Source: Gemmatimonadota bacterium
GTDB lineage: Bacteria > Gemmatimonadota > Gemmatimonadetes > Longimicrobiales > Gaopeijiaceae
DNA length: 36,587 nucleotides
Assembly: GCA_007121455.1 (NCBI GenBank)
Contig: SKKN01000056.1
Coordinates: forward strand, 1-36,587
Reading direction: 5' to 3'
Part shown: positions 1,044 to 12,869 of the stretch, in pieces
How positions within the stretch are numbered: the first letter of the stretch is position 1
Layout: each line of letters begins with the position of its first letter
Notes under the pieces: generated by a model
Databases searched by the model: none
Seen by the model: only the letters and a program-made list of their open reading frames with translations
What the model was told of the DNA's origin: nothing
Made by a program: the position numbers and the translations under genes

Positions 1044-1120
1044 CCAGCTGTCCGCCTGGAACTCGAGCTCTCCTGTCGCGGCTGAGCGGAGGGGGAACCG
1101 TGATCCAACCGGGCTCAGTC

Positions 1121-1137
1121 GCCGAGACCGTCTCGGC
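1121..1137. repeat. Perfect palindrome beside repeat copy 1
   Basis: Eight-base arms GCCGAGAC and GTCTCGGC flank one central base. The same GAGA/TCTC vocabulary fills the repeat copy that starts about 75 bp to the right, so this is probably an outlying part of that element. It lies upstream of the chosen start of the PAS gene. Confidence 0.6.
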
Positions 1138-1212
1138 CTGGTCGAGACCGAGTTCTGTGGAAGAGATCGTGTCCCGTGGCCGACCATTTCCAGTGGCCGA
1201 GAACCATGTCCC

Positions 1213-1401
1213 GTGACCGAGATAGATCTCGAAACCGAAGGGCCGCGTGGGATCGCCGCCGAGATCCGTCTCGGATGGCGGGCCAAATCTCGATCGCGAT
1301 CGTCCGCTGGGGTGACGACTTCGAGATCCGTCTCGATTTCCGAGCGAAATCTCGATTCCGTGCCGCGGGTGACCATCGCATCCGAGATTCATCCTGCTCG
1401 G
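1213..1401 (+). repeat. Palindrome-rich interspersed repeat, copy 1
   Basis: This segment aligns almost without gaps to 2435-2624 and 12310-12499, at roughly 80% identity judged by eye. It contains a dense series of short inverted repeats: GAGAT/ATCTC near its left end, CGAGAtccgTCTCG twice, the 12-bp palindrome CGATCGCGATCG, and GATTT/AAATC around CCGAGCG. The most conserved part is the right half. The IS91-type transposase fragment lies just to its right. Reading frames through it are open on the minus strand, but in several frames at once, which argues for DNA-level rather than protein-level conservation. Confidence 0.85.
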
Positions 1402-1463
1402 ACTGCCGCTGCCCCTTTTCGCGTTGCGCATGCGGCCGTGCTCTCCCATGACTGGCTTTGGCC

Positions 1464-1538
1464 ATCCTCGGAGAACACCCCATCGAGGACCAGGACGTGG
1501 AGGTGGGTATGAGAGTCGAGGCTCGATCCGAACCGGTG
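1464..1538 (-). pseudogene. Fragment of IS91-type (Y2/HUH) transposase
   Basis: On the minus strand a run of about 25 codons reads HRFGSSLD then SHTHLHVLVLDGVFSEDG. This closely matches the signature of IS91-family transposases (Y2_Tnp), in which a histidine-hydrophobic-histidine motif precedes VLVLDGVF; here it is HLH. Residues on either side in the same frame (YPPSYTG before, GQSQSWESTAAC after) do not continue a recognisable transposase, and the catalytic tyrosine region is absent. It is therefore a decayed scrap, not a gene. It lies between repeat copy 1 and the next gene, in an otherwise gene-free stretch of about 690 bp (1044-1731). Confidence 0.6.
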
Positions 1539-1648
1539 CGAACCCGTGTAGGAAGGAGGATACGACAGGAGCACGCTCGCCGAAGCGCCCGAAGCGATCA
1601 TGACGGAGTAGCCGCGGCAGGCGAGTCGCTTCCTGCACCTCCACGACA

Positions 1649-1678
1649 GTGACCGGCCGCGGACGCGTCCGGTATAAA
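1649..1678 (+). promoter_or_regulatory. Possible promoter of the secreted helical protein
   Basis: GTGACC (1649-1654) and TATAAA (1673-1678) are separated by 18 bp. The -10 is a good sigma-70 match and the -35 is weak. Transcription would begin near 1685, about 45 bases before the chosen start codon. An imperfect inverted repeat, ACCGG/CCGGT (about 1652-1672), occupies the spacer and could bind a regulator. Confidence 0.35.
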
Positions 1679-1731
1679 TCTTGCAGTGTAGAGCGGGCAC
1701 GTTCATGATCGCCACCGAAGGAGGGATGAGT

Positions 1732-2364
1732 ATGTACGCCATTGCTCCGAAAGCGCTTGCCCTCAGCCTGGCGATGATGTTGGTGGGGGCCATAGGGAAC
1801 CCGCTCCAGGCCCAGGATCCGCCGCTGCCCCCTGAACCTGAGCGGGAGCAGGACCGCGAGCGGGAGGAAATGCAGGAGTTCCAGCAACGGATGGAGCTCA
1901 TGATCCAACGGATGAAGGCCATCCGCGATCAGGCCCAACGTGTCGACCTCGAGATGGGGGAGAGGCTTGTAGAGAGGCGCCTCATGGAGGGGGATGTGGA
2001 TGCGCCCGAGCGCCCTGTTGACCCAGAGGCCCGGCCCGAAGAGCGGCCGATGGCGGACGAAGCCGCCGTGATGCTCGATCACGAGCGAATTCGACGCCTG
2101 GCGCGAACGATGGGGAGGACAGCGGAGAACGTCCTCGACGCCATGGAACAGGCGCGAGAGATGCAGCGGGATCGCGCAGTCCGCAGGGCAATGGAAGCCC
2201 GCGATGGACACCAGAGCCTCGCGCACCTTTGGGCACAGCTCGAGGAGTTGGGAAGGGCCGTGGACCAAAACATGGGCGCCGGGTTGAGGATCCTGGAAGG
2301 GATGGGGGAGACGCTCCAGGACCCTGAGGCGACGCGGGATCCGGCCGATGACGAGGGCAACTGA
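1732..2364 (+). CDS. Secreted charged helical protein, unknown function
   Basis: The 210-residue product begins MYAIAPKALALSLAMM and has a clear signal peptide ending near NPLQAQ, so it should be exported to the periplasm. The mature part is almost entirely charged, with Glu/Arg/Gln/Met-rich helix (for example EREEMQEFQQRMELMIQRM) and no cysteines, so an elongated helical or coiled-coil protein is likely. I chose the ATG at 1732 because AGGAGG (1719-1724) sits seven bases upstream; an ATG at 1726 directly abuts that site. No family is recognised; a role in metal or stress binding would be guesswork. It stands alone between the IS91 fragment and repeat copy 2. Confidence 0.7.
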   Translation: MYAIAPKALALSLAMMLVGAIGNPLQAQDPPLPPEPEREQDREREEMQEFQQRMELMIQRMKAIRDQAQRVDLEMGERLVERRLMEGDVDAPERPVDPEARPEERPMADEAAVMLDHERIRRLARTMGRTAENVLDAMEQAREMQRDRAVRRAMEARDGHQSLAHLWAQLEELGRAVDQNMGAGLRILEGMGETLQDPEATRDPADDEGN

Positions 2365-2370
2365 AGCGGG

Positions 2371-2386
2371 GCTGCCGGTCGGCAGC
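2371..2386 (+). terminator. Weak hairpin after the helical-protein gene
   Basis: GCTGCC and GGCAGC flank a four-base loop starting six bases after the stop codon at 2364. There is no T-run, so a termination role is only suggested by position. Confidence 0.25.
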
Positions 2387-2434
2387 GCCGTGGCGGACTG
2401 CGAGGATCGGGGAGATAGATCCGGCGGAACGTCA

Positions 2435-2624
2435 GTGGCCGAGATGGATCTCAATACTGAAGGGCGATGCGGAATCAGGGTCGAGATCCGTCTCGGCTAA
2501 CGGGCCAGATCTCGATCGCGATTGTCCCCCGGGGTGACGACCTTGAGATCCGTCTCGATTTCCGAGCGAGATCTCGATCCCGTCCCGCGGGTAGTCGTCG
2601 CCTACGAGATTCATCCCGGTCCGG
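2435..2624 (+). repeat. Palindrome-rich interspersed repeat, copy 2
   Basis: Second copy of the roughly 190-bp repeat, in the same orientation as copy 1 and co-linear with it. It retains GAGATCCGTCTCG twice, the ATCTCGATCGCGAT block and the GATTTCCGAGCGA core. It sits 70 bp after the secreted helical gene, in the gap before the convergent PAS/zinc-motif gene. Confidence 0.85.
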
Positions 2625-2850
2625 GGTACAGGAGGCGCGCTCGAGGCCGACGAAGGCCAGCGTCAGCGGGAAATGCGGAGCTGCGGCGCACCGCCGCAGC
2701 ACTTCTCATCGAGCCACGTTTGCTCGATCTTCGTCCGCGTGAACCAGAGGGGGCACATCGCGCCGCGAGAGAGAAGCTCCAACTGGGCCCCCCCTGTGGG
2801 GGGGGGTCGGGCTCGCTGGCGTTACCGTAGGCCAAAAGCTTGCGACCCCT
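2625..2850. other. Gap with two strong hairpins between convergent genes
   Basis: No gene is seen. It holds a perfect 9-bp-stem hairpin, GCTGCGGCG-cac-CGCCGCAGC (2680-2700), and a C7-TGT-G9 inverted run (2788-2806). Neither is followed by a T-run in either direction. They may act as transcription barriers between the rightward helical gene and the leftward PAS gene, but that is inference from position. Confidence 0.5.
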
Positions 2851-3432
2851 TCAAGCCGCGCTTCCGTTCGAACCGTCCTCCTCGTCCAGACCCTTCAGTT
2901 GCCGCTCGTAACAGTCCGGGCATAACCCATGCGAGACCCGGGTGTCCCGCTCCTCGGCGAGGTAGCGCTCGATCGTATCCCACTCTCCCTCTTCGTTCTG
3001 GATCTTGTCGCACCACGAGCAGATGGGGAGGAGCCGGCGGAGTCGCGCGACCTCCGACTGCGCCTCCCTGAGCTCCGTGATGTTCGTGGCGATCAGCAGC
3101 ACCGAGGTCCCCCCTTCATCCTCGCCGAAGGGGAGCATCCGACTCCGGTACCATGCGTGGAAGCCGTCCGCCAGCGTGAATTCGGCGTCGTATTCCTGCG
3201 GTTCACCGGTCTCCTTCAGCGCTTCGAGCGCACTGTAGAAGACCTTCCGGGACTCCGGGGGCAGCGCCTCGTCGACCTGCAAGCCGACGAGCTCCTCGGG
3301 CTCGTACCCGGGCTCGGCCCGGTTCAGGTACCGGATGCGGCGGTCTGGACCGACCACGACCACGAACTCCGGAATGCTTCGGAGGATGGCCGCGAGGCGC
3401 TCGGCGTCGGGGGGAACGGGGGAAGATGCCAT
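2851..3432 (-). CDS. PAS sensor with C-terminal Cys4 motif
   Basis: The 193-residue protein has one PAS domain (about 8-120: IPEFVVVVGPDRRIRYLNRAE, then ATNITE at the PAC end) and a short C-terminal module LLPICSWCDKI plus GLCPDCYE. Cysteines 138, 141, 171 and 174, with His168 nearby, make a CxxC...CxxC arrangement that could hold zinc. This module follows PAS, GAF or receiver domains in many bacterial signalling proteins; its output is unknown. No transmembrane segment is present, so it should be cytoplasmic. It starts three bases after the stop of a small upstream ORF, which suggests translational coupling; its own ribosome-binding site is weak. Confidence 0.8.
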   Translation of the reverse strand: MASSPVPPDAERLAAILRSIPEFVVVVGPDRRIRYLNRAEPGYEPEELVGLQVDEALPPESRKVFYSALEALKETGEPQEYDAEFTLADGFHAWYRSRMLPFGEDEGGTSVLLIATNITELREAQSEVARLRRLLPICSWCDKIQNEEGEWDTIERYLAEERDTRVSHGLCPDCYERQLKGLDEEDGSNGSAA

Positions 3433-3435
3433 CGC

Positions 3436-3678
3436 TCAGCGGGGCCGGGCGGGCACGCGTTCGAACCGGATCCACGGGACGATGGGGCCGCCGAATGGAT
3501 ACGATTTGCTGGAGAGGCGGCGCTCCACGAAAAAGCACCCCGTCGGCCGCTCCACCCTTCCCCGCGGACCCGGCAGATCGTCTGCCTGGAACGGGGACCG
3601 AAGCTCCCCGGGAGCTCTGCCGGCCGTGAGGACCGAGGCGGAGCTCACGAGGCGGCACACACGACTGCTGCTCCTCAT
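3436..3678 (-). CDS. Small hypothetical ORF coupled to the PAS/Cys gene
   Basis: An 80-codon frame starts MRSSSRVCRLVSSASV with AGGAG placed six bases upstream of its ATG, and stops three bases before the ATG of the PAS/Cys gene. The protein is Arg/Pro-rich and basic, with no recognised domain. Support comes only from the good ribosome-binding site and the tight junction. The alternative is that the stretch is untranslated leader. No other gene was seen in 3433-3816. Confidence 0.4.
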   Translation of the reverse strand: MRSSSRVCRLVSSASVLTAGRAPGELRSPFQADDLPGPRGRVERPTGCFFVERRLSSKSYPFGGPIVPWIRFERVPARPR

Positions 3679-3816
3679 GATTGACTCCTGAGGGCTGAAC
3701 CCCGACCTCGAGACGGACACCCCGGCCACCACTGGAACCTCAGCGATGACCTAAGCCCACGCAAGCGCGCCCGAGGCACGGTTCCTGCTTCCGGTTCGCA
3801 GGCTGAGGCGCGACAA

Positions 3817-5304
3817 ATGAGCATTCCCAGGGAGGAAGGCGTGCGGAAGAAGATCCATACAGGCTGCAATGGGCTCGACTGGCTTACCCGTGGGGGCGTG
3901 CCGGCGGGATCCCTGCTGCTGGTGGCCGGAGACCCGGGGTCGGGGAAGACGATCCTCGCACACCAGATCGCCTCGACGCTCGGTCCCGAGGAGCGAACGG
4001 TCTACCTGACGGCGCTCGTCGAGGCCCACGGCACGATTCAGGCCCAGATCGCCGCCTTCGACTTCTTCGGCCCGTCCACGGTAGGCCGCCAGCTCTACTA
4101 CGCCTCGGTGCATGCGGCCTTCAAGGAGCGTGGACTCGAGGCCGTTCGGGTTCACATTACCGAGTTCGCCCGGAACCAGAACGCGTCCCTCGTCGTCCTC
4201 GACGGGCTCCATGCGCTGAAGGCGTCCGCCGAGGATCCCTCGGAATACCACCGCTTCGTGAGCGCCCTGCAGGCCCACGCAGACGCGACCGGACTGACCC
4301 TCATCGTCATCTCGAACCGCGCCGATGGCGACGCCGCAGACCCGATGTATACGATCGCGGACGGGATCCTGCTCCTCCAGACGGAGAAGCGGGGGGAGAT
4401 GAGGGTGCGGCGCCTCGAGGTCCGAAAGCTCCGCACGGTGGGGCAGGTGATGGGGCAACACGCGTTCGAGATCACTCCGCGCGGGATCACGGTCTACCCA
4501 CGGCTGGAGGCGCGGGCCGCTCGGATCGAGGACCCGCAGCCGGGGCCCGGCCCGGAGGCGCTCCAGTCCTTTGGGGTCGAGGGGCTGGACCGCATGCTGG
4601 GCGGGGGCATCGAGCCGGGCTCCGCCACCCTCGTGATCGGTCCGGCGGGGGCGGGAAAGACGTCCCTGGGGCTCGCCTACCTCACCGCGGGTCTCGAGGA
4701 GGGGCAGCGCGGTGTCTTCATGGGCTTTCACGAACCCCCTGCCGGCATCGTGCGAAAAGGGGAATCGATCGGGCTCCCCTTGAGGAAGCACGTCGCCGGG
4801 GGCAGCGCGCGGCTCTTTTGGCATACGGCGGCGGAGATTCCCGCCGACCGCTGTGCGCACCGGCTCCTCGAGGCGGTCGAGGAGCTCGACGCGACGCGCG
4901 TCGTGATCGACGGCATGGACGACTTCCTCGGGAGCCCGGAACGTGCAGAACGGAGGCTGAGCTTCGTGGCCGCGCTCATCGACCTCCTCCGCGCCCGCGG
5001 GACGAGCATCCTCCTCACGATGCAACTCCCGGAGGTCTTCAGCCTCGATCTCACGGTGCCGGTGGACGAGATCCCCTCCTCGATCGACAACATCATCCTC
5101 CTCCGGTACCAGGAAGTGCGCTCGGAGACCCGTGGGCTCGTCTCCATCGTGAAGGTCCGGTCACAGGGCACGGATCCGGCGACCCGGGAGTTCTTCATCC
5201 GGGGGGAGAAGGGTCCGGTCGTGGACGAGCCGTTCACGGTGGTAAGACGGATGGTCGGCCGTGGAGCATCCGAGCCGGGGTGGAACGAGCCAGGAGAGGA
5301 GTGA
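3817..5304 (+). CDS. KaiC-like double RecA-fold ATPase
   Basis: The 495-residue protein has two RecA-like KaiC domains. Domain 1 (about 12-235) has Walker A GDPGSGKT at 38-45 and Walker B SLVVLDG near 124-130. Domain 2 (about 250-480) has Walker A GPAGAGKT at 275-282 and Walker B RVVIDG. KaiC proteins carry a paired-glutamate FEE motif after the first strand. Here domain 1 reads LTALVEAHG and domain 2 MGFHEPP, so each keeps at most one of the pair. No KaiA or KaiB is nearby, so a circadian role should not be assumed; such proteins usually act as signalling ATPases or kinases. The stop overlaps the ATG of a receiver protein (TGATG), so the two are made together. GAGG lies about eight bases before the ATG. 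Confidence 0.85.
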   Translation: MSIPREEGVRKKIHTGCNGLDWLTRGGVPAGSLLLVAGDPGSGKTILAHQIASTLGPEERTVYLTALVEAHGTIQAQIAAFDFFGPSTVGRQLYYASVHAAFKERGLEAVRVHITEFARNQNASLVVLDGLHALKASAEDPSEYHRFVSALQAHADATGLTLIVISNRADGDAADPMYTIADGILLLQTEKRGEMRVRRLEVRKLRTVGQVMGQHAFEITPRGITVYPRLEARAARIEDPQPGPGPEALQSFGVEGLDRMLGGGIEPGSATLVIGPAGAGKTSLGLAYLTAGLEEGQRGVFMGFHEPPAGIVRKGESIGLPLRKHVAGGSARLFWHTAAEIPADRCAHRLLEAVEELDATRVVIDGMDDFLGSPERAERRLSFVAALIDLLRARGTSILLTMQLPEVFSLDLTVPVDEIPSSIDNIILLRYQEVRSETRGLVSIVKVRSQGTDPATREFFIRGEKGPVVDEPFTVVRRMVGRGASEPGWNEPGEE

Positions 5305-5684
5305 TGCGACTGCGCATCCTGGTCGCGGAAGACGAGCCCTTCCTTCTCGAGATCACCACCCTCGTGCTCGAGGATGCCGGCCACGAGGTGCTCGGGGCCG
5401 CCGACGGAACGCGGGCCCTCCGGGTCGCGCGCGAGGAGAAACCGGACGTCGTGCTCCTCGACATCATGATGCCGGGCCTCGACGGCAGGGACGTCGCCCG
5501 TCAGCTCCGGTCCGACCCCTCGCTCGAGGGCGTCCGGATCGTCCTCTACAGCTCCCTCTCCGAGTCCCAGGTGGACTGGAGAGAGGCGGGTGCGGACGCC
5601 TTCCGGTCTAAGGGGGAAAGCGTGCGACACCTTCCGAAGTTCGTGGAAGATCTGGTCCGCATGTCTCCGGACGGAGACGGTTGA
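5304..5684 (+). CDS. Single-domain response regulator
   Basis: The 126-residue protein is only a receiver domain. It shows the acidic pair E9/D10, the phospho-acceptor D53 in VVLLDIMMPG, the Ser of VLYSS and the conserved Lys in FRSKG near 103. It has no DNA-binding or enzymatic output, so it probably works by protein-protein contact. Its ATG overlaps the stop of the KaiC-like gene, a strong sign of co-translation and a likely functional pair. The large hybrid kinase downstream has its own candidate promoter and could phosphorylate it; that link is inference. Confidence 0.88.
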   Translation: MRLRILVAEDEPFLLEITTLVLEDAGHEVLGAADGTRALRVAREEKPDVVLLDIMMPGLDGRDVARQLRSDPSLEGVRIVLYSSLSESQVDWREAGADAFRSKGESVRHLPKFVEDLVRMSPDGDG

Positions 5685-5703
5685 CGAGGCGGGTCGCGGC
5701 CTC

Positions 5704-5757
5704 TTACAGGGGGATCCGTACGATGAACGCGCTCCCCCGTCCCACTTCGCTCTCGCG
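5704..5757 (-). pseudogene. C-terminal scrap of a histidine kinase
   Basis: On the minus strand the codons read RESEVGRGSAFIVRIPL followed by TAA. This is the standard last strand of a kinase ATPase domain (commonly SEVGxGSxFxVxLPL then stop). Nothing kinase-like precedes it in the frame, and the surrounding 175 bp are intergenic, so this is the tail of a deleted kinase that ran opposite to the present genes. Confidence 0.55.
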
Positions 5758-5776
5758 CGTTTCGGCTCACCCCGCC

Positions 5777-5805
5777 TTGCTGTGACAAATAGTCTGCCGC
5801 ATAAT
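5777..5805 (+). promoter_or_regulatory. Possible promoter of the hybrid kinase
   Basis: TTGCTG (5777-5782) and CATAAT (5800-5805) are separated by 17 bp. The -10 matches five of six consensus bases and the -35 keeps TTG. Transcription would start near 5812, about 48 bases before the kinase ATG. Confidence 0.45.
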
Positions 5806-5859
5806 GTGCACTGATGCTGGAGGATCCCGCGTACGGCATCCCCCCGAACGAGGCAGACC

Positions 5860-8046
5860 ATGTCGCGTACCCCCGGCTCGCGGCCTTCCTCGAGGCCAGC
5901 CTTCATGATCGCGCTCGCTTACGCCGTGCTCGCGTTCGGGTGGATCGCGTTGAGCGACCTCTTCCTCGAGCAGCTTACGCAGGATCCGGGGAGCATGCGG
6001 CTCCTCGGGACGGTGAAGGGAGGCCTCTTCGTCCTCGTGACGGCGGTCGGGCTCTATTGGATCGTCGGCCGCCAGCTCGGGCGCTCCGAGCGGGACGCTC
6101 ACATGCTCCGGTTCATGGTCGAGTGTGTCCCGGAGGTCCTCTACCGGCACCGGCTCGCGCCCGCGCGCGGCTTCGAGTTCGTGAGCCCCGCGATCGAGGA
6201 AGTGTCGGGATATCCCCCGTCGGCGTTCTACAAGAACCCGAATCTCGCCCTCGAGCTCGTGCATCCGGATGACCGCGGAGGAATGGAGGAGGCGGCGCGC
6301 GAAGCTGCGGAATCCGGGAGCCCGCTCGAGCTCCGCTGGGTGCGGGCGGATGGGGAAGTGCGCTGGGTGGAGCATCGGGTCACGCTCGTACGGGACGGGG
6401 AGGGCCGGGCGACGGGGATCGTCGGGATCGCCCGCGACGTGTCCGCACGAAAGGAGGGGGAAGAGAAGCGAAAGCTCCTCGAGGCGGCCGTCGAGGCTGC
6501 GGGGGAGTCGGTGCTCGTCACGGACGAACAGGGGAGGATCGAGTATGTGAATCCGGCGTTCGAGCGGATCACCGGCTACACGCTCGGGGAGATCCGGGGC
6601 GAGAACCCTCGGATCCTTCAGAGCGGTGAGCAGCCGGCCGTCTTCTACAACCGCATGTGGAGCAAGCTCCTCGCGGGAGAGGCCTTCCATGGCGAGTTCC
6701 TGAACCGGAGGAAGGACGGCTCCCTCTACCGGCAGGAAGCCACGATCACGCCGATCCTGAATGGGAACGGCCGGCCCACGCGGTTCGTGGGAGTGGCCCG
6801 GGACGTGACGGAGAGGCGCCTCCTCCAGGGGGAGCTTCGGGAAGCGCAGAAGGCGGAGCTGCTGGGCCAGCTCTCCGGGGGGATCGCCCACGACTGCCGG
6901 AACGTGCTCGGTGTGATCCAGGCCCATGCCGACCTTGGCCTCTCGGCCCTCGACGACGGCCGCTCACCACGGGAGGAGCTCGAGGAGATCGCGGCCACCG
7001 TCCAGCGAGGCTCCCGCCTGCTCAAGGGGCTCCTGAGCCTTGGCCGGAAGGGCGACTTCGAGTTCGAGCACACCTCGCTCAGCGACCTGATCCGGGAGAT
7101 GCGTCGCACGCTCCAGGCCGTCTTCCCTGAGAGCGTCGAGGTGGAGCTCGACCCGGGCGTGGACTTCTCCGCGGCCGTGGATCAGGGATCCGTCTACCAG
7201 ATGGTGCTGAACCTCGCCACGAATGCAAGGGACGCGATGCCTGCGGGTGGGCGCTTCACGCTCCGAATCACACGGCTTCCGGGAAAGGAGGCCGGGCCTT
7301 CGCTGAACGGGACCCGCGAATCCGAACCCGAATCCTGGATCCAGTTGGAGGTGACGGACACCGGCACGGGAATGGACGAGGAGACGCGCCGGCGCATCTT
7401 CGAGCCTCTCTTCACGACGAAGCCCCCGGGCAAGGGCACCGGGCTCGGCATGAGCATGGTCGTCCGCCTGATGGAGGCGCACGGAGGCCGCATCACGATC
7501 GAGTCCGCGCTCGGAGAGGGGACGACGGCCCGCCTCCTCTTTCCGCCATCGCAAAGCCCATCGTCAGAGGCACCGACGCCCTCCGCGCCCACCACCTCGA
7601 ACAGAAACGGGATCGAGCTCGAGACGGGGACGGAACGGATCCTCGTGGTAGAGGACGAGGAGCCCCTTCGCAGGGCGATGGTGCGAACGCTCGAGCGCCT
7701 CGGATACGGGGTCGTACAGGGCGCGGACGGCAAGGAGGCCCTGCGGCTCCTCGCGGAGGAGGAGGTCGACCTCGTGATCACGGACCTCGTCATGCCGAAT
7801 CTGGGGGGACGGGAGCTTCACGATGAGATGCAGCTCATCGGGCTTGCCGATCTGCCGGTCCTCTTCATGTCCGGCTATCGTGCCGAGGATATAGAAACCG
7901 GCTCCCTTCCGGCAGCGTCCCGCACGCTCCTCGAGAAGCCGTGGACCCTCCCGGAGTTGGCAGCCAGGGTGCGAGAGGCGCTGGGCACCGCCGGAGCGCG
8001 CGCCGGCTCACAACCGACCCGAAGCGCCACCGGCATGTCCTCGTGA
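5860..8046 (+). CDS. Membrane hybrid histidine kinase (PAS-PAS-HK-receiver)
   Basis: The 728-residue protein has two transmembrane segments (about 15-35 and 50-70) joined by a short outer loop, so it senses inside the cell or in the membrane. Then come PAS 1 (about 82-195), PAS 2 (about 205-320), the phospho-acceptor helix with H344 in GGIAHDCRN, the ATPase domain ([30 protein letters not shown]) and a receiver (593-715) with D642 in VITDLVMPN and K693. It is a self-contained hybrid sensor that needs a downstream phosphotransfer partner, not seen here. It follows the KaiC-like/receiver pair on the same strand after 175 bp containing its own promoter candidate. Relics of another kinase begin at its 3' end. 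Confidence 0.9.
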
Positions 8047-8078
8047 ACCTCCTGGAGAACGCGGTCACGTCTACTCGG
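8016..8078 (+). pseudogene. Kinase N-box relic overlapping the hybrid-kinase 3' end
   Basis: In a frame different from the hybrid kinase, the sequence reads [20 protein letters not shown], the N-box of a histidine-kinase ATPase domain (typically DxxRLxQVLxNLLxNAVKYT). The frame meets a stop at 8109-8111 with no other kinase motif. The last 31 bases of the hybrid-kinase gene (8016-8046) overlap it out of frame. The simplest reading is that a deletion joined the end of the hybrid kinase to the middle of another kinase gene. Confidence 0.6.
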
Positions 8079-8104
8079 GGGAGAGGTCGAGGTCCGCCGG
8101 TTCG

Positions 8105-8278
8105 ATCCTGATCCCGATGTCCGAAAACGATCTTGCTCTCGTCCTCCTCGATGATGTAGAAGTCCCCCTGGATCCTGCGCTTGAGGTCGACGAGCACGAG
8201 GGCGACCTGGGACCGCTCGAGTGGAACCTTGAGCCCGGAGATGGTTCGAGGCGTCTCCGCCTTCCGACGGTCACTGCT
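8105..8278 (-). pseudogene. Relic resembling a MetOD1-type signalling module
   Basis: On the minus strand about 58 codons look protein-like: [19 protein letters not shown], then [14 protein letters not shown] and KIVFGHRDQ. From memory this resembles the methanogen output domain 1 found in some sensor kinases (RLGGDFxVEEEDxxIVxxNRRCPFG). The expected CPFG continuation is missing and the frame degenerates into GC-rich noise, so the module is broken. With the N-box relic beside it, it fills most of the 379-bp gap before the serpin. The domain assignment is tentative. Confidence 0.4.
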
Positions 8279-8425
8279 CACGCATCGTTCCACCATCCCG
8301 GAGCAGGGCCCATTCCTGCATCGCATGGGGTATCAAGGACCCGCGGTCGGTTACCCGCCGTCACAGAACGCTTCGGCCGCTCGTTATCTTCGGTAGAAGG
8401 CACCATCCAGCGACGGAGCACTCCC

Positions 8426-9679
8426 ATGACCCGCAGCGCCGCCCCCCTCAGCGCCGCCCTCTTTGCCGCCCTCACCCTACTCTCGGGGTGCGAATCCGTA
8501 TCGGGTCCGGGCGACAGCGAGCCCATCTCCATCACGGACGTGGACGCCCGGGTGGTGAAGGGATACACGGACTTCGGGTTCGACGTCTTCCGGCACCTTT
8601 CCGAGGAAGAGCCCGACGAGAACATCTTCTTCTCCGGCACGAGCCTCGCCTTCGCGCTGGCGATGACGTACCACGGCGCGGACGGAGAGACGCGCCGAGA
8701 GATGGGCCACGCGCTCGGAGTCGAGGACGTTCCGGTCGAGGAGTTCAACGCGTCCAACGCGGAGTGGCTCGGAACGCTTCTCGATCAGCCGGGGGACACG
8801 GAGCTCGCGATTGCAAACTCCGTGTGGGCTCGCCTCGGCTTCCCCTTCGAGAGCAACTTCCTGGAGCGGAACGAGACGTTCTACCGGGCCGCGGTCGAAG
8901 AGGTGGACTTCGGGGACCCGGCAACCGTGGAACTGATCAACGCCTGGGTCTCGGAGCAGACCCACGGAAGGATCGACGGGATCGTCGAGGAGATCGACCC
9001 GCTCGACATCATGTTCCTGATCAACGCCGTCTACTTCCTGGGAGAGTGGACCCACCGCTTCCCGGAGGACGGCACCAGTCCCGAAGCCTTCACCTTCGGG
9101 GACGGAACCCACGGACAGGTTCCGATGATGACGATGCGTGACACCCTCGAATATCACGAAGCCGAGGGCTACCAGGCCGTGCGCCTCCCGTACGGGGAGG
9201 ACGGGCGCTTTGCGATGTACGTCTTCCTTCCGGCTCCCGGCTCGAGCCTTGGGGCCTTTTACCAGGACCTCGACGGGGCCGAGTGGGAGCGGCGGATCGA
9301 GGGGCTCGAACCGTCGGACCTGGAGCTCCGCCTCCCGAGGTTCACGCTCGAGTACGAACAATCGCTCATCCCGGCACTTGCTGCACTCGGAATCGAAGGG
9401 GCCTTCGACCCCTCCCGCTCCGATTTCTCCCTCATGACGCAGGCCCGGGACGACCTGTACATCAGCGATGTGCTCCAGAAGACCTTCGTGCAGGTGAACG
9501 AGACGGGTACAGAGGCGGCGGCGGTGACTTCGGTGACCATCTCGGTGACGAGCATGCCCTCCCATCCGATGATGGTGGTGAATCGTCCCTTCTTCTTCGG
9601 CATCCGGGACGACCACACCGGGACGATCCTCTTCCAGGGGCAGATCACGACCCCGAAAGATCCCGAATGGGAGGGATAG
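8426..9679 (+). CDS. Lipoprotein serpin (serine-protease inhibitor family)
   Basis: The 417-residue protein starts MTRSAAPLSAALFAALTLL and has a lipobox LLSGC with C22 as the lipidation site, so it should be anchored outside the cytoplasm. The body is a full-length serpin fold: SGTSLAFALAMTYHGA early, LINAVYFLGEW in the middle, and a hinge ETGTEAAAVTS at 359-369 followed by NRPFFFGI. The alanine-rich hinge is that of inhibitory serpins. Counting 17 residues from E359 puts the cleavage bond near T375-S376, although the following segment is about two residues longer than in alpha-1-antitrypsin. The target protease is unknown; a Thr P1 would suit elastase-like enzymes. GGAG precedes the ATG. The 3' end overlaps the convergent kinase gene by 35 bp. 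Confidence 0.93.
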   Translation: MTRSAAPLSAALFAALTLLSGCESVSGPGDSEPISITDVDARVVKGYTDFGFDVFRHLSEEEPDENIFFSGTSLAFALAMTYHGADGETRREMGHALGVEDVPVEEFNASNAEWLGTLLDQPGDTELAIANSVWARLGFPFESNFLERNETFYRAAVEEVDFGDPATVELINAWVSEQTHGRIDGIVEEIDPLDIMFLINAVYFLGEWTHRFPEDGTSPEAFTFGDGTHGQVPMMTMRDTLEYHEAEGYQAVRLPYGEDGRFAMYVFLPAPGSSLGAFYQDLDGAEWERRIEGLEPSDLELRLPRFTLEYEQSLIPALAALGIEGAFDPSRSDFSLMTQARDDLYISDVLQKTFVQVNETGTEAAAVTSVTISVTSMPSHPMMVVNRPFFFGIRDDHTGTILFQGQITTPKDPEWEG

Positions 9680-10814
9680 GGATCGGCTCGAGCGCGGGCG
9701 CCTCCCGGAGGGGCAGCGTGAACACGAAGCTCGTCCCTTCCCCTACCACGCTCTCCACCGCGATGTCGCCGCCGAGGAGCTTCGCGAGCCGGTGGCTCAC
9801 CGCGAGGCCGAGCCCCGTTCCGCCCTTTCGGCGGGAGGGGGGCTGGTCGAGCTGGGTGAAGGGCTCGAAGACGCGGAGGAGGTCCGGCGGCGCGATTCCA
9901 GGCCCCTCGTCCCTCACCTGGATCACGACCTGCCCTCGGGCCTCCTCCAATGAGATGAGAACGCGTCCCTCGTCCGTGAACTTGATGGCGTTGCCGACGA
10001 GGTTCAGGAAGATCTGGCGGAGCTTTTGCTCGTCCGTGTGGGTGACCAGTGGCCCGGCCGGCACGGCCACTTCGAGCACGAGGCCCTTGGAGGTGGCCTG
10101 CGGCTCGAGGAGCTCCGCGACCTCCCGGGCGAGCGCCGCCGGATCCACGCGATCCTCGTGGAGCTCGCCCCCGCCCACCTCGGCGGTGGTGAAGGTGAGG
10201 ATCTCTTCGATCACCCCGACGAGGTGCCAGGCAGCGGCCCGCATGCGGGCCAGATGCGCGCGTTGTGCGTCGTTCACCGGTCCGGGGACGCCGTCCTCCA
10301 TCAACCGTGCGTACCCGATGATCGCGTTGAGAGGGGTCCTCAACTCATGGCTCATTACGGCGAGGAACCGGCTCTTGGCGAGGCTGGCCGCTTCCGCCTC
10401 CTGATAGAGCCGTGCCCGGTCGAGGGCGAGGGCGGCGCGGACGGAGAGTTCCCGAACGAGGTCGACGTCCGCGTCACCCAGGGGTGTGCGCCCCCCCTCC
10501 ACCGTGAAGACGGAGAAGACGCCGAGGACCTGCCCTCCGACGGTGAGCGGCGCGATGATCGCGGAGCTGAGCCGCAGCCCCCGCATCGCGGCGAGGTGTT
10601 CGCGATTGAAGGCGTGCTCGACCATGAGTTCATCCTTGATGTTCGGGAGGGTCGTCGGCATTGCCGTGCGGACGACCTCCGCGATCACGCCCGAGCCCTC
10701 CAGGTCGACTGGGCTCGAACGCTCGAGCTTCCGGATCCACTCCTCCTGGCTCGGGTCCACATGGGCCGCCGCGACCCGTCGGATCGATCCATCCACGTCG
10801 ATCCTGTACGTCAC
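9645..10814 (-). CDS. Sensor kinase, C-terminal part (GAF-HisKA-ATPase) after in-frame stop
   Basis: This is the downstream part of a sensor kinase whose upstream part is 10920-11663. Both lie in the same frame with one TAA between them. From the first usable start (GTG at 10814, 389 residues) the frame holds most of a GAF domain (to about 135), the phospho-acceptor helix with H156 in MSHELRTPLN, and a complete ATPase domain (LNLVGNAIKF; DEGPGIAPP; GGTGLGLAVS; GEGTSFVFTLPL). The 35 codons between the TAA and this GTG are also GAF-like (RLLADAGHALASTLDP, then ALDELARVTVG), so a start at 10814 would cut the GAF domain. The catalytic core is intact. It could be a restart product, a product of stop readthrough, or a broken gene. 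Confidence 0.75.
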   Translation of the reverse strand: MTYRIDVDGSIRRVAAAHVDPSQEEWIRKLERSSPVDLEGSGVIAEVVRTAMPTTLPNIKDELMVEHAFNREHLAAMRGLRLSSAIIAPLTVGGQVLGVFSVFTVEGGRTPLGDADVDLVRELSVRAALALDRARLYQEAEAASLAKSRFLAVMSHELRTPLNAIIGYARLMEDGVPGPVNDAQRAHLARMRAAAWHLVGVIEEILTFTTAEVGGGELHEDRVDPAALAREVAELLEPQATSKGLVLEVAVPAGPLVTHTDEQKLRQIFLNLVGNAIKFTDEGRVLISLEEARGQVVIQVRDEGPGIAPPDLLRVFEPFTQLDQPPSRRKGGTGLGLAVSHRLAKLLGGDIAVESVVGEGTSFVFTLPLREAPALEPIPIPPIRDLSGS

Positions 10815-10919
10815 GCAGCAGTCCGCAACCGTGCCGACCGTGACACGGGCCAGCTCGTCCAGGGCCTCCCGGGGGTCCAGGGTCGAGGCGAGCGCATGCC
10901 CCGCATCCGCGAGAAGACG

Positions 10920-11663
10920 TTACGCGCGCTCCGTGCGGATGCGCTCCGTGATGTCTTCGTTCACGATGACGGCACCCAGGAGCCGTCCGTCCGGGGCGAG
11001 GACGGGGACCGCCGAGTTCCGGATGATCTTCTGAGTGCCATCGAAGGCCTGGATCCGGATCTCTTCGTCGAGAGAGGTCTCCCGATGCCGGATCGCGCGG
11101 GTGAGGGCCCACTCCTCCGGAGCGATTAGCTTGCCGCTATCGAGCCACCACGCCTTGATGTCCCCGGACGGTTCGAGCCCGCGGTGCTGCCCTCTCTCGA
11201 GCCCCCAGATGCGGCGGCCCGCTTCGTTCACGAAGTCGATCCGACCCTGCTCATCCGCGAACCAGACGCCCATGGGAAGCGCCCCGAGGGCCGTGCGAAG
11301 CCTACCCTCACTCTCTTCGAGCGCCCGCGCGTGCTCCCGCGCCTGCTCCCTCGCTGCCCGCAGGTTCGCCGTCACTCCGGAGAGGAGGGCTCCCACCCCG
11401 ACGAAGAGGGCGATACGAACCACGTTCGATCCACCCTCGGGGGGCAGGAGGCTCACTCCGACGAGCGCCCCCGTTGCGAGGAAGAGGGCGGAGAGGAACG
11501 TTGCGAGCAGGCCCGTGCCGGCCCCTCCGATCCAGGCACTGAGGAGGATCGCGGGGAAGAGCAGGAGGAAGGCGTTGACCTCGAAGAAGCCGCGGAAGAA
11601 CACGGTGACGAGGAGCGCGACCCCGATGATCGCGACGACGGCAGCGTATCTCCACGCGGTCAT
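10920..11663 (-). CDS. Sensor kinase, N-terminal part (membrane + PAS) ending at an in-frame TAA
   Basis: The 247-residue product has four hydrophobic helices in the first 105 residues (AAVVAIIGVALLVTVFF; FLLLFPAILLSAWIGG; and two more), arranged like a DUF4118/KdpD-type membrane module. A linker and one PAS domain follow (about 128-240: ALGALPMGVWFADEQG through VNEDITERI). It stops at TAA (10920-10922). The next codons in the same frame read RLLADAGHALASTLDP, the usual beginning of a GAF domain in PAS-GAF kinases. Alone it has no output domain. The ATG has GGGAG about nine bases upstream and lies 12 bases after the stop of the CheB/kinase chimera. Confidence 0.8.
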   Translation of the reverse strand: MTAWRYAAVVAIIGVALLVTVFFRGFFEVNAFLLLFPAILLSAWIGGAGTGLLATFLSALFLATGALVGVSLLPPEGGSNVVRIALFVGVGALLSGVTANLRAAREQAREHARALEESEGRLRTALGALPMGVWFADEQGRIDFVNEAGRRIWGLERGQHRGLEPSGDIKAWWLDSGKLIAPEEWALTRAIRHRETSLDEEIRIQAFDGTQKIIRNSAVPVLAPDGRLLGAVIVNEDITERIRTERA

Positions 11664-11675
11664 CGCCGACGCTCC

Positions 11676-12125
11676 CTATTCCGGATCCGGGCCCGCGCCG
11701 TCCCGGCTCGGATCGACTTCGAGCACCGGAGGGACCCGCACGCGAAAGCGGGCTCCTCCTCCCTCCCGGCCCTTCAACTCCACCTCTGCCCCGAGGTGGA
11801 CCGCGGGGTCGCGCACCACCGACAGGCCAAGGACGGTGCCCTGGATCCCGATGGGACGACGCCCCTCCCGTCCCTGCCAGAAGTGCTCGAAGATGCGCTC
11901 CTTGTTCTCCGCCGGGATCCCCGCCCTTCGATCAAGGATCTCGGGGAGGCGGCTCTCGTGATCCGGGGCGAGGTGGAGCACGACCACATATGCGATGCCG
12001 GAATCGGGAGGGACCGCATCGAAGAACCGGCCGAGCGCCTCCAGGTCCCCGGCGGAGCCGCCGATCGCGATCACGGGAACCGAAAATTCCGGCGAAGAAT
12101 CGTACGATTCGTACGATTCGGGCAT
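11676..12125 (-). pseudogene. CheB/histidine-kinase chimera, internally deleted
   Basis: Residues 14-64 are the beginning of a CheB methylesterase domain: VPVIAIGGSAGDLEAL with nucleophile S24, then VVVLHLAPDHES with H51 and LPEIL. At residue 66 the sequence switches directly to the end of a kinase ATPase domain: AGIPAENKERIFEHFWQG, a degraded glycine box (IQGTVLGLSVVRD) and GGARFRVRVP. Many large CheB-CheR-PAS-kinase fusions have exactly these two ends, so roughly a thousand residues between them appear to have been lost by an in-frame deletion. The CheB catalytic Asp, all of CheR and the kinase His are missing. The frame is open and leads into the split kinase after 12 bp, so a 149-aa protein may still be made. 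Confidence 0.65.
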
Positions 12126-12200
12126 GCGGAGGAGGGGTTCGGAAAATCGAGCGCTCGGTGCCGGGGAGTCGGTCGAGGTGCGAAAGAATCCGATCCGTCA

Positions 12201-12229
12201 ATATTAGGTGATCCGACTCCCGCGGCGAA
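12201..12229 (-). promoter_or_regulatory. Possible promoter of the chimera and split-kinase genes
   Basis: On the minus strand TTCGCC (12229-12224) and TAATAT (12206-12201) are separated by 17 bp. The -10 is a good match and the -35 is weak. It would drive the chimera and, through it, the split kinase. Confidence 0.35.
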
Positions 12230-12309
12230 AGGCCGGTGTTAGGGCTTGCCTCTGCCGATACTGCCTGAAATTGTGAGAGGAGAACATCTGCAAAGCGTCG
12301 GAGACCGCA

Positions 12310-12499
12310 GTGGGCGAGACCGATCTCGATACCGAAGGGCGATCCCGGATCGGGGTCGAAATCCGGCTCGGATAGCGGGACACATCTTGATCGCGATCGC
12401 CCGCCGGGGTGACGACTTCGAGATCCATCCCGATTTCCGAGCGAAATCTCGATTCCGTGCTGCGGGTAGTCGTCGCCTGCGAGATCCATCTCGGCTCCG
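12310..12499 (+). repeat. Palindrome-rich interspersed repeat, copy 3
   Basis: Third copy of the roughly 190-bp repeat, 9.7 kb from copy 2 and in the same orientation. It is closest to copy 1 in the right half: both contain an identical GGGGTGACGACTTCG block and the GATTTCCGAGCGAAATCTCG core. It sits between the chimera's promoter region and the end of the DksA-like gene, which starts 28 bp further on. About 60 bp to its left (12240-12309) carry nothing recognisable. Confidence 0.85.
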
Positions 12500-12527: not shown

Positions 12528-12869
12528 CTACCCCGCGCAGGCCGGGCAGTGCTCGACCTCGGGCATCACGATCAGCCGGCCCACCTCGATCCCGTCTCCG
12601 CAGCGGGTACAGGTCCCGTACACGTCCTCCCGGATCCGCTCCAGGGCGGCCTGGAGCGCGGCGTACCGCGCCTGCTCCCGCTCCTGGAGGTTTCGGCTCA
12701 TTTGCTGGTTCTGGAGCGAGTCCATACGGGAGAGCCGGCCGACCGCCTGCTGGTCGAGCTGCACCGGTCGCACGGCCTCTTCCGTCACGGACATGCTCCG
12801 CTCGAGGCGCTCGAGCTGCCGCTCCAGATCGACGCGCAGCTCTTCGAGCATGTCGGGGGGGAGGGGCAT
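12528..12869 (-). CDS. DksA/TraR-type zinc-finger protein
   Basis: The 113-residue protein is a long helical region (about 5-82, LEELRVDLERQLERLERSM) followed by a C4 zinc finger (YGTCTRCGDGI and HCPACAG; C87, C90, C108, C111). That is the layout of the DksA/TraR family, which binds RNA polymerase through its secondary channel, or of smaller relatives with unknown partners. It is shorter than DksA (about 150), and the acidic coiled-coil tip (DxxDxA) typical of DksA is not seen. I chose the ATG at 12869 because GGAG lies seven bases upstream; the frame is open to 12965. A 17-bp sequence from inside the gene is repeated 57 bp upstream of the start. Confidence 0.82.
   Translation of the reverse strand: MPLPPDMLEELRVDLERQLERLERSMSVTEEAVRPVQLDQQAVGRLSRMDSLQNQQMSRNLQEREQARYAALQAALERIREDVYGTCTRCGDGIEVGRLIVMPEVEHCPACAG

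What the first reader, a model, noticed from the sequence alone, without database searches (positions are those of the whole stretch)
1213..12499. Three co-oriented copies of a palindrome-packed ~190-bp repeat
Seen: 1213-1401, 2435-2624 and 12310-12499 align with almost no gaps at roughly 80% identity, each carrying several GAGAT/ATCTC-type inverted repeats and the 12-bp CGATCGCGATCG or a variant. All point the same way and all sit in intergenic DNA of the accessory half; none is near the origin genes. Inferred: a mobile or structured element (REP/BIME-like, a non-autonomous transposon or a multi-hairpin RNA) that has spread in this lineage.
Basis: seen in the sequence. Interest (0 to 1): 0.75.

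Follow-up and report, generated by a model that had tools for sequence, protein, structure and literature searches.

The report
Scattered six-site DNA arrays, rigid spacing
A bacterium of the phylum Gemmatimonadetes and scattered relatives carry, between their genes, copies of a 181-base DNA block made of exactly six alternating 16-base sites at fixed distances, which looks like a docking platform for an unknown DNA-binding protein rather than an RNA or an ordinary repeat.

Summary
The three window copies belong to a family with 13 full arrays and one truncated array in the 3.53-Mb draft genome. More occur in at least seven other genomes of the same order (Gemmatimonadetes MAGs where named), patchily: 8 of 154 genomes. 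The element is not a bag of palindromes. It is six 16-bp sites (consensus TCGASATTTNGCYCGG) on alternating strands, with start-to-start spacing 42-19-43-19-42 bp. This spacing is exact in 29 of 32 arrays, although site sequences differ between genomes and spacers are unconserved. All arrays examined are extragenic. In the own-genome family the sites evolve at 0.45 times the spacer rate even on terminal branches, and no indel occurs inside the array, so individual copies appear to be under selection where they sit. RNA or REP/BIME readings fail their key tests: no pairing partner is preferred, no compensatory change occurs within copies, and no RAYT transposase is found in any of the eight carriers. 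Best explanation: a dispersed binding platform for an unidentified trans-acting protein, spread by unknown copying. One relative shows a single hypervariable base in each site, unexplained.

The parts
1217..1397 (+). Array 1 (six sites, divergent intergenic region): sites 1217-1232(-), 1259-1274(+), 1278-1293(-), 1321-1336(+), 1340-1355(-), 1382-1397(+)
   Evidence: site calls and spacing 42-19-43-19-42; CM R2 161.8 bits
2439..2619 (+). Array 2 (convergent intergenic region, 74 bp after the stop of ORF 1705-2364): sites 2439-2454(-), 2481-2496(+), 2500-2515(-), 2543-2558(+), 2562-2577(-), 2604-2619(+)
   Evidence: CM R2 159.9 bits
12314..12494 (+). Array 3 (33 bp past the stop of the minus-strand zinc-finger ORF 12528-12869): sites 12314-12329(-), 12356-12371(+), 12375-12390(-), 12418-12433(+), 12437-12452(-), 12479-12494(+)
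   Evidence: CM R2 141.2 bits
1259..1293 (.).
   Evidence: palindrome axes every ~31 bp at columns 33.5, 64, 95, 126, 156.5

Best explanation
Each copy is a nucleoprotein platform: six 16-bp recognition sites for one DNA-binding protein encoded elsewhere. The sites sit in three inverted pairs with rigid spacing, at roughly whole helical turns (a repeat unit of 61-62 bp is about six turns), so that six protomers or three dimers can dock side by side into one compact complex. Shown: the six-site anatomy, fixed spacing, extragenic placement, lineage-specific site sequence shared by the six sites, constraint on sites in individual copies, and lack of pairing-partner covariation. Inferred: the bound protein, its cooperative assembly, and a role in the non-coding DNA where it sits, such as a transcription or fork barrier, boundary or chromosome-organising mark. 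How the arrays are copied to new places is unknown.
For: Spacing 42-19-43-19-42 exact in 29 of 32 arrays from eight genomes, and no seventh or zeroth site. Zero indels inside eight own copies that are 74-82% identical, and none in the arrays of near-identical G106 copies whose flanks do carry indels. Own-family sites 86.5% against spacers 72% identical; terminal-branch rate ratio 0.45, p 2e-5. The two alternative pairings give equal pairing and covariation (77.5% / 0.216 against 78.1% / 0.222) and within-copy pair excess is about zero, as expected when all sites answer to one recogniser. 0 of 31 arrays overlap a predicted gene by more than 20 bp (chance per array about 0.11).
Against: No binding protein was identified. 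Recent multiplication in G106 (about 20 copies, contigs breaking on them) and the 430-bp duplicate C18/C4 also suit a mobile element. Folding of single strands is strong (z -10.6 in G106), though six inverted near-identical sites force that. Site/spacer contrast is absent in the recent G106 copies, as expected for their youth but not confirming. Helical phasing is approximate.
Confidence: 0.52

Rival explanations
1. A non-autonomous transposable element (MITE-like): the array is two ~90-bp complex ends, each with three transposase-binding sites, mobilised by an unidentified transposase; the sites are conserved because only transposase-competent copies spread.
For: Dispersed multi-copy, patchy among genomes, recent burst in G106, mirror-symmetric ends.
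Against: No target-site duplication was seen by eye in the flanks (no formal test). No array or half-array was found beside rve-type transposase genes in G000, G106, G022, G111. The middle distance (sites 3-4, 43 bp) is as rigid as the rest, which independent ends would not need. Site constraint is just as strong on terminal branches as on internal ones (0.45 against 0.51).
Confidence: 0.27
2. A structured RNA or single-stranded DNA fold (three-way junction of sites 1:6, 2:3 and 4:5) acting at the RNA level, for example as a 3' mRNA stabiliser or terminator.
For: Stable predicted folds (z -2 to -10.6); many arrays lie within 100 bp of a stop codon.
Against: No preferred partner; RNAalifold covariation term unfavourable, +1.35; within-copy pair identity not above expectation in the own family or G106, and 2:3 even below it; hypervariable bases break the stems; unconserved 26-27-bp spacers hardly ever change length; no Rfam match; some arrays lie between divergent genes.
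Confidence: 0.13
3. A REP/BIME element copied by a RAYT (Y1) transposase.
For: Alternating inverted units in extragenic DNA, regularly spaced, several to many copies per genome.
Against: No PF01797 match in any of the eight carrier genomes, while controls ring; unit number fixed at six; most sites outside the own family are not palindromic by themselves.
Confidence: 0.04
4. A local triplication without function.
For: Three copies within 11.3 kb; five array pairs lie within 12 kb of each other in the genome, P about 0.0008 for random placement.
Against: Copies elsewhere in the genome and in other genera; neighbours are no more alike than distant copies; sites constrained.
Confidence: 0.01

Closest known systems
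BIME / REP (bacterial interspersed mosaic elements; PMC2817692)
   Same: Extragenic, dispersed, regularly spaced units in alternating orientation; BIMEs bind IHF, gyrase and Pol I, so a nucleoprotein role has a precedent.
   Different: BIME unit number varies and units are REP stem-loops tied to a RAYT; here always six, exact spacing, sites mostly not palindromic, no RAYT.
MITEs and other small bacterial mobile repeats such as RUP, Correia/NEMIS, ERIC
   Same: Short, non-coding, multi-copy, inverted-repeat symmetry.
   Different: No target duplication seen, no related transposon found, and the whole body rather than the ends is length-locked and site-structured.
Multi-site transposon ends (Tn7-, Mu- and IS21-type; from general knowledge)
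   Same: Several ~20-bp binding sites for one protein at set distances.
   Different: No transposase gene attached; sites alternate strand and are symmetric about the centre.
Chromosomal binding-site systems (parS, matS, datA/DnaA boxes; from general knowledge)
   Same: Dispersed extragenic protein-binding sites that act where they sit.
   Different: Those use single palindromes or irregular clusters; a fixed six-site alternating array is not known to me.

Membership tests
REP/BIME | Y1-family RAYT transposase in the genome | tested here: not met
   No PF01797 match in G000 or in seven other carriers; caveat: draft genomes, 87-98% complete
REP/BIME | Each unit is a palindromic stem-loop | tested here: not met
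   Site is TCGASATTTNGCYCGG, asymmetric; in G106 TCGACATTTTCCCCGG. Only own-family sites happen to be near-palindromic
REP/BIME | Alternating orientation in extragenic DNA | tested here: met
MITE | Terminal inverted repeats | tested here: met
   Whole element is an ungapped near-palindrome about column 95
MITE | Target-site duplication | tested here: inconclusive
   None seen by eye in the flanks of about 30 copies, no formal test
MITE | Related autonomous transposon | tested here: inconclusive
   None near rve transposases and none by DNA search of the own genome; draft assemblies, one transposase family tested
Structured RNA | Covariation with specific partners | tested here: not met
Structured RNA | Match to a known RNA family | tested here: not met
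   Rfam 15, window, none
Structured RNA | Discrete transcript | not testable with these tools
   no RNA-seq
Protein-binding array | Sequence-specific protein binding | not testable with these tools
   no protein known
Protein-binding array | Sites more constrained than spacers, spacing fixed | tested here: met

The most novel reading that the evidence does not exclude
A new class of bacterial chromosomal element: a dispersed, length-locked six-site nucleoprotein array with its own dedicated binding enzyme, whose site sequence is re-specified in concert in each lineage and whose sites carry one enzyme-marked (nicked or modified) base, seen as a mutation hot spot in G106.
Probability: 0.22. Interest if true: 0.85.

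Novelty: new variant of a known kind. Interest (0 to 1): 0.62.

Why it matters
Bacterial intergenic repeats are usually explained as hairpin RNAs or as transposon leftovers. Here is a family in which geometry, not sequence, is what is kept across genera, with signs that each copy works where it sits. Finding the bound protein would reveal either an unknown chromosome-organising or transcription-boundary system in a little-studied phylum, or an unusual mobile element. The invariant-column pattern and the covariance model make the family directly searchable.

Tried and rejected
Protein coding: no reading frame is open in all copies and there is no codon periodicity. First alignment misled: BLAST paired two copies in the wrong orientation because the element is near-palindromic; corrected. 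Strict own-family pattern in 257 Gb: no hit. Plain DNA search of 57 relatives: one weak partial hit only; the relatives appear only with a family model. R1 hits around 20-28 bits in many genomes are mostly noise, several of them apparently inside genes. Provencibacterium pattern hit L133: not supported by the covariance model, so chance. IS21/rve transposase as parent: no arrays beside those genes. Plasmids and phages: none; viral contigs: none. Neighbouring genes: no shared neighbour family across arrays. Literature: no paper found in the held library that describes such a repeat in Gemmatimonadetes.

Full report
What was checked. They do not code for protein. A search of the whole draft genome G000 (3.53 Mb, 80 contigs; the window is contig 13) with one copy gave eight full copies at once, two of them in the opposite orientation, as a corrected alignment showed. 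A ninth runs off a contig end (C34:10037-10096) and a diverged tenth lies on C6. Models built from these added C18, C4, C21 and C29: 13 full arrays and one truncated array.

Anatomy. Complementarity analysis gives palindrome axes every ~31 bp (columns 33.5, 64, 95, 126, 156.5). The element is therefore six modules in alternating orientation, not a set of unrelated hairpins. Each module holds a 16-bp site, consensus TCGASATTTNGCYCGG, about 17 bits. Start-to-start distances are 42-19-43-19-42 bp, exact in 29 of the 32 arrays examined. Two differ by 1 bp, and one (G097) does not fit the site model although the covariance model reaches it. There is no site at the position where a zeroth or seventh would fall, apart from one modest score in G111. 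In two G050 arrays the last site is poor. Caveat: arrays were found with models of fixed architecture, though the covariance model tolerates indels.

Distribution. The paired model R2 finds full-length arrays in 8 of 154 genomes of the order (7 of 61 genera, two families) and in no further genome among 395 sampled from the phylum (only the top candidates per genome were scored, so weak members may be missed). A pattern of invariant columns scanned over 257 Gb of named genomes gave 14 hits: 13 in Gemmatimonadetes MAGs and one that the covariance model does not support. Contig lengths identify G106 as isolate CSSed10_216R1, G022 as CSSed162cmB_50, G050 as CSSed162cmB_488R1 and G052 as 0813_bin10. 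That the CSSed names mean soda-lake sediment is my recollection, not tested.

Site sequence is specific to genome and subfamily, and the six sites of an element resemble each other: TCGAGATCCGTCTCGG in the window family, TCGACATTTTCCCCGG in G106, TCTRCYTTTCKCTCGG in G111. G106 carries about 20 copies, many at contig ends, indicating recent multiplication. Its main group lies inside a 391-bp repeat with 65-70-bp repeats in the flanks. In G000 the C18 and C4 arrays are part of a 430-bp, 90%-identical duplicate.

RNA or DNA-protein? If the sites served specific hairpins, paired sites should covary with their partner. Two incompatible pairings (2:3, 4:5, 1:6 against 1:2, 3:4, 5:6) do equally well: 77.5% against 78.1% of cells paired, covariation 0.216 against 0.222. 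Within copies of one genome, paired sites are no more alike than expected from different copies (G106 phase could be scrambled by assembly, but the own copies are on separate diverged loci). Strong predicted folds follow from having six inverted similar sites. This fits one recogniser reading all sites, not one fold.

Function in place. In the own family, site columns are 86.5% and spacer columns 72% identical. On a tree of the copies the site/spacer rate ratio is 0.45 on terminal branches (p 2e-5) and 0.51 on internal ones (tree support is low, 8 copies plus outgroup). Copies therefore seem to be under selection after insertion, which inert transposon copies would not be. None of 31 arrays overlaps a predicted gene by more than 20 bp; with both neighbours known, 7 lie between convergent, 14 between tandem and 5 between divergent genes. 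Five array pairs lie within 12 kb of each other in G000, more than random placement gives (P about 0.0008). The gene caller is home-made.

Known kinds. BIMEs are the nearest in looks: alternating regularly spaced REPs in extragenic DNA, with known protein partners (PMC2817692). No RAYT was found in any of the eight carriers, the unit number is fixed, and the units are not stem-loops. MITE remains possible: no target duplication was noticed in flanks (by eye) and no array lies beside rve transposases. Plasmids, phages and viral contigs hold none. Rfam has no match in the window.

Unexplained. Among 12 near-identical G106 copies, the third base of the site (TC[N]ACATTT) deviates in 21 of 59 cases, against 16/861 in spacers, 10/910 at other site positions and about 4% in the outer flanks of the same repeat (Fisher p 1e-17 and 7e-14). 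The letters, read on the site strand, are G, C and T, never A. A cleavage or modification point of the binding enzyme would do this; so might something not thought of here. The own family does not show it.

Verdict. Best reading: a dispersed, extragenic six-site protein-binding platform, geometry conserved and protein unknown (0.52). A mobile element with complex ends is the main rival (0.27).

Noticed in passing
G106 arrays (L073-L089), site position 3: One base per site is hypervariable among near-identical copies (35.6% against 1-4% elsewhere), G/C/T but never A.
   Followed up: partly
G106 L086:2948-3338, L088:2912-3430: The array sits inside a 391-bp repeat flanked by ~65-70-bp tandem/direct repeats; several other arrays (L060, L075, L091, L055, L056) also have short tandem repeats right at their ends.
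   Followed up: partly
window 1120-1212: Upstream of array 1 the left-end motif CCGTGGCCGA recurs in degenerate copies, like small tandem duplications of the array edge.
   Followed up: no
L018:4337-5728, L019:8566-9963, L020:17868-18578: Three of the few contigs with arrays carry a BBE-domain FAD oxidase gene next to or near the array; possibly chance.
   Followed up: no
G000 C13, C34, C58: Arrays cluster (five pairs within 12 kb) although clustered copies are no more similar to each other than to distant ones.
   Followed up: partly
window 11676-12125: Small minus-strand ORF scoring both CheB methylesterase and HATPase_c fragments, likely a truncated or fused signalling gene.
   Followed up: no
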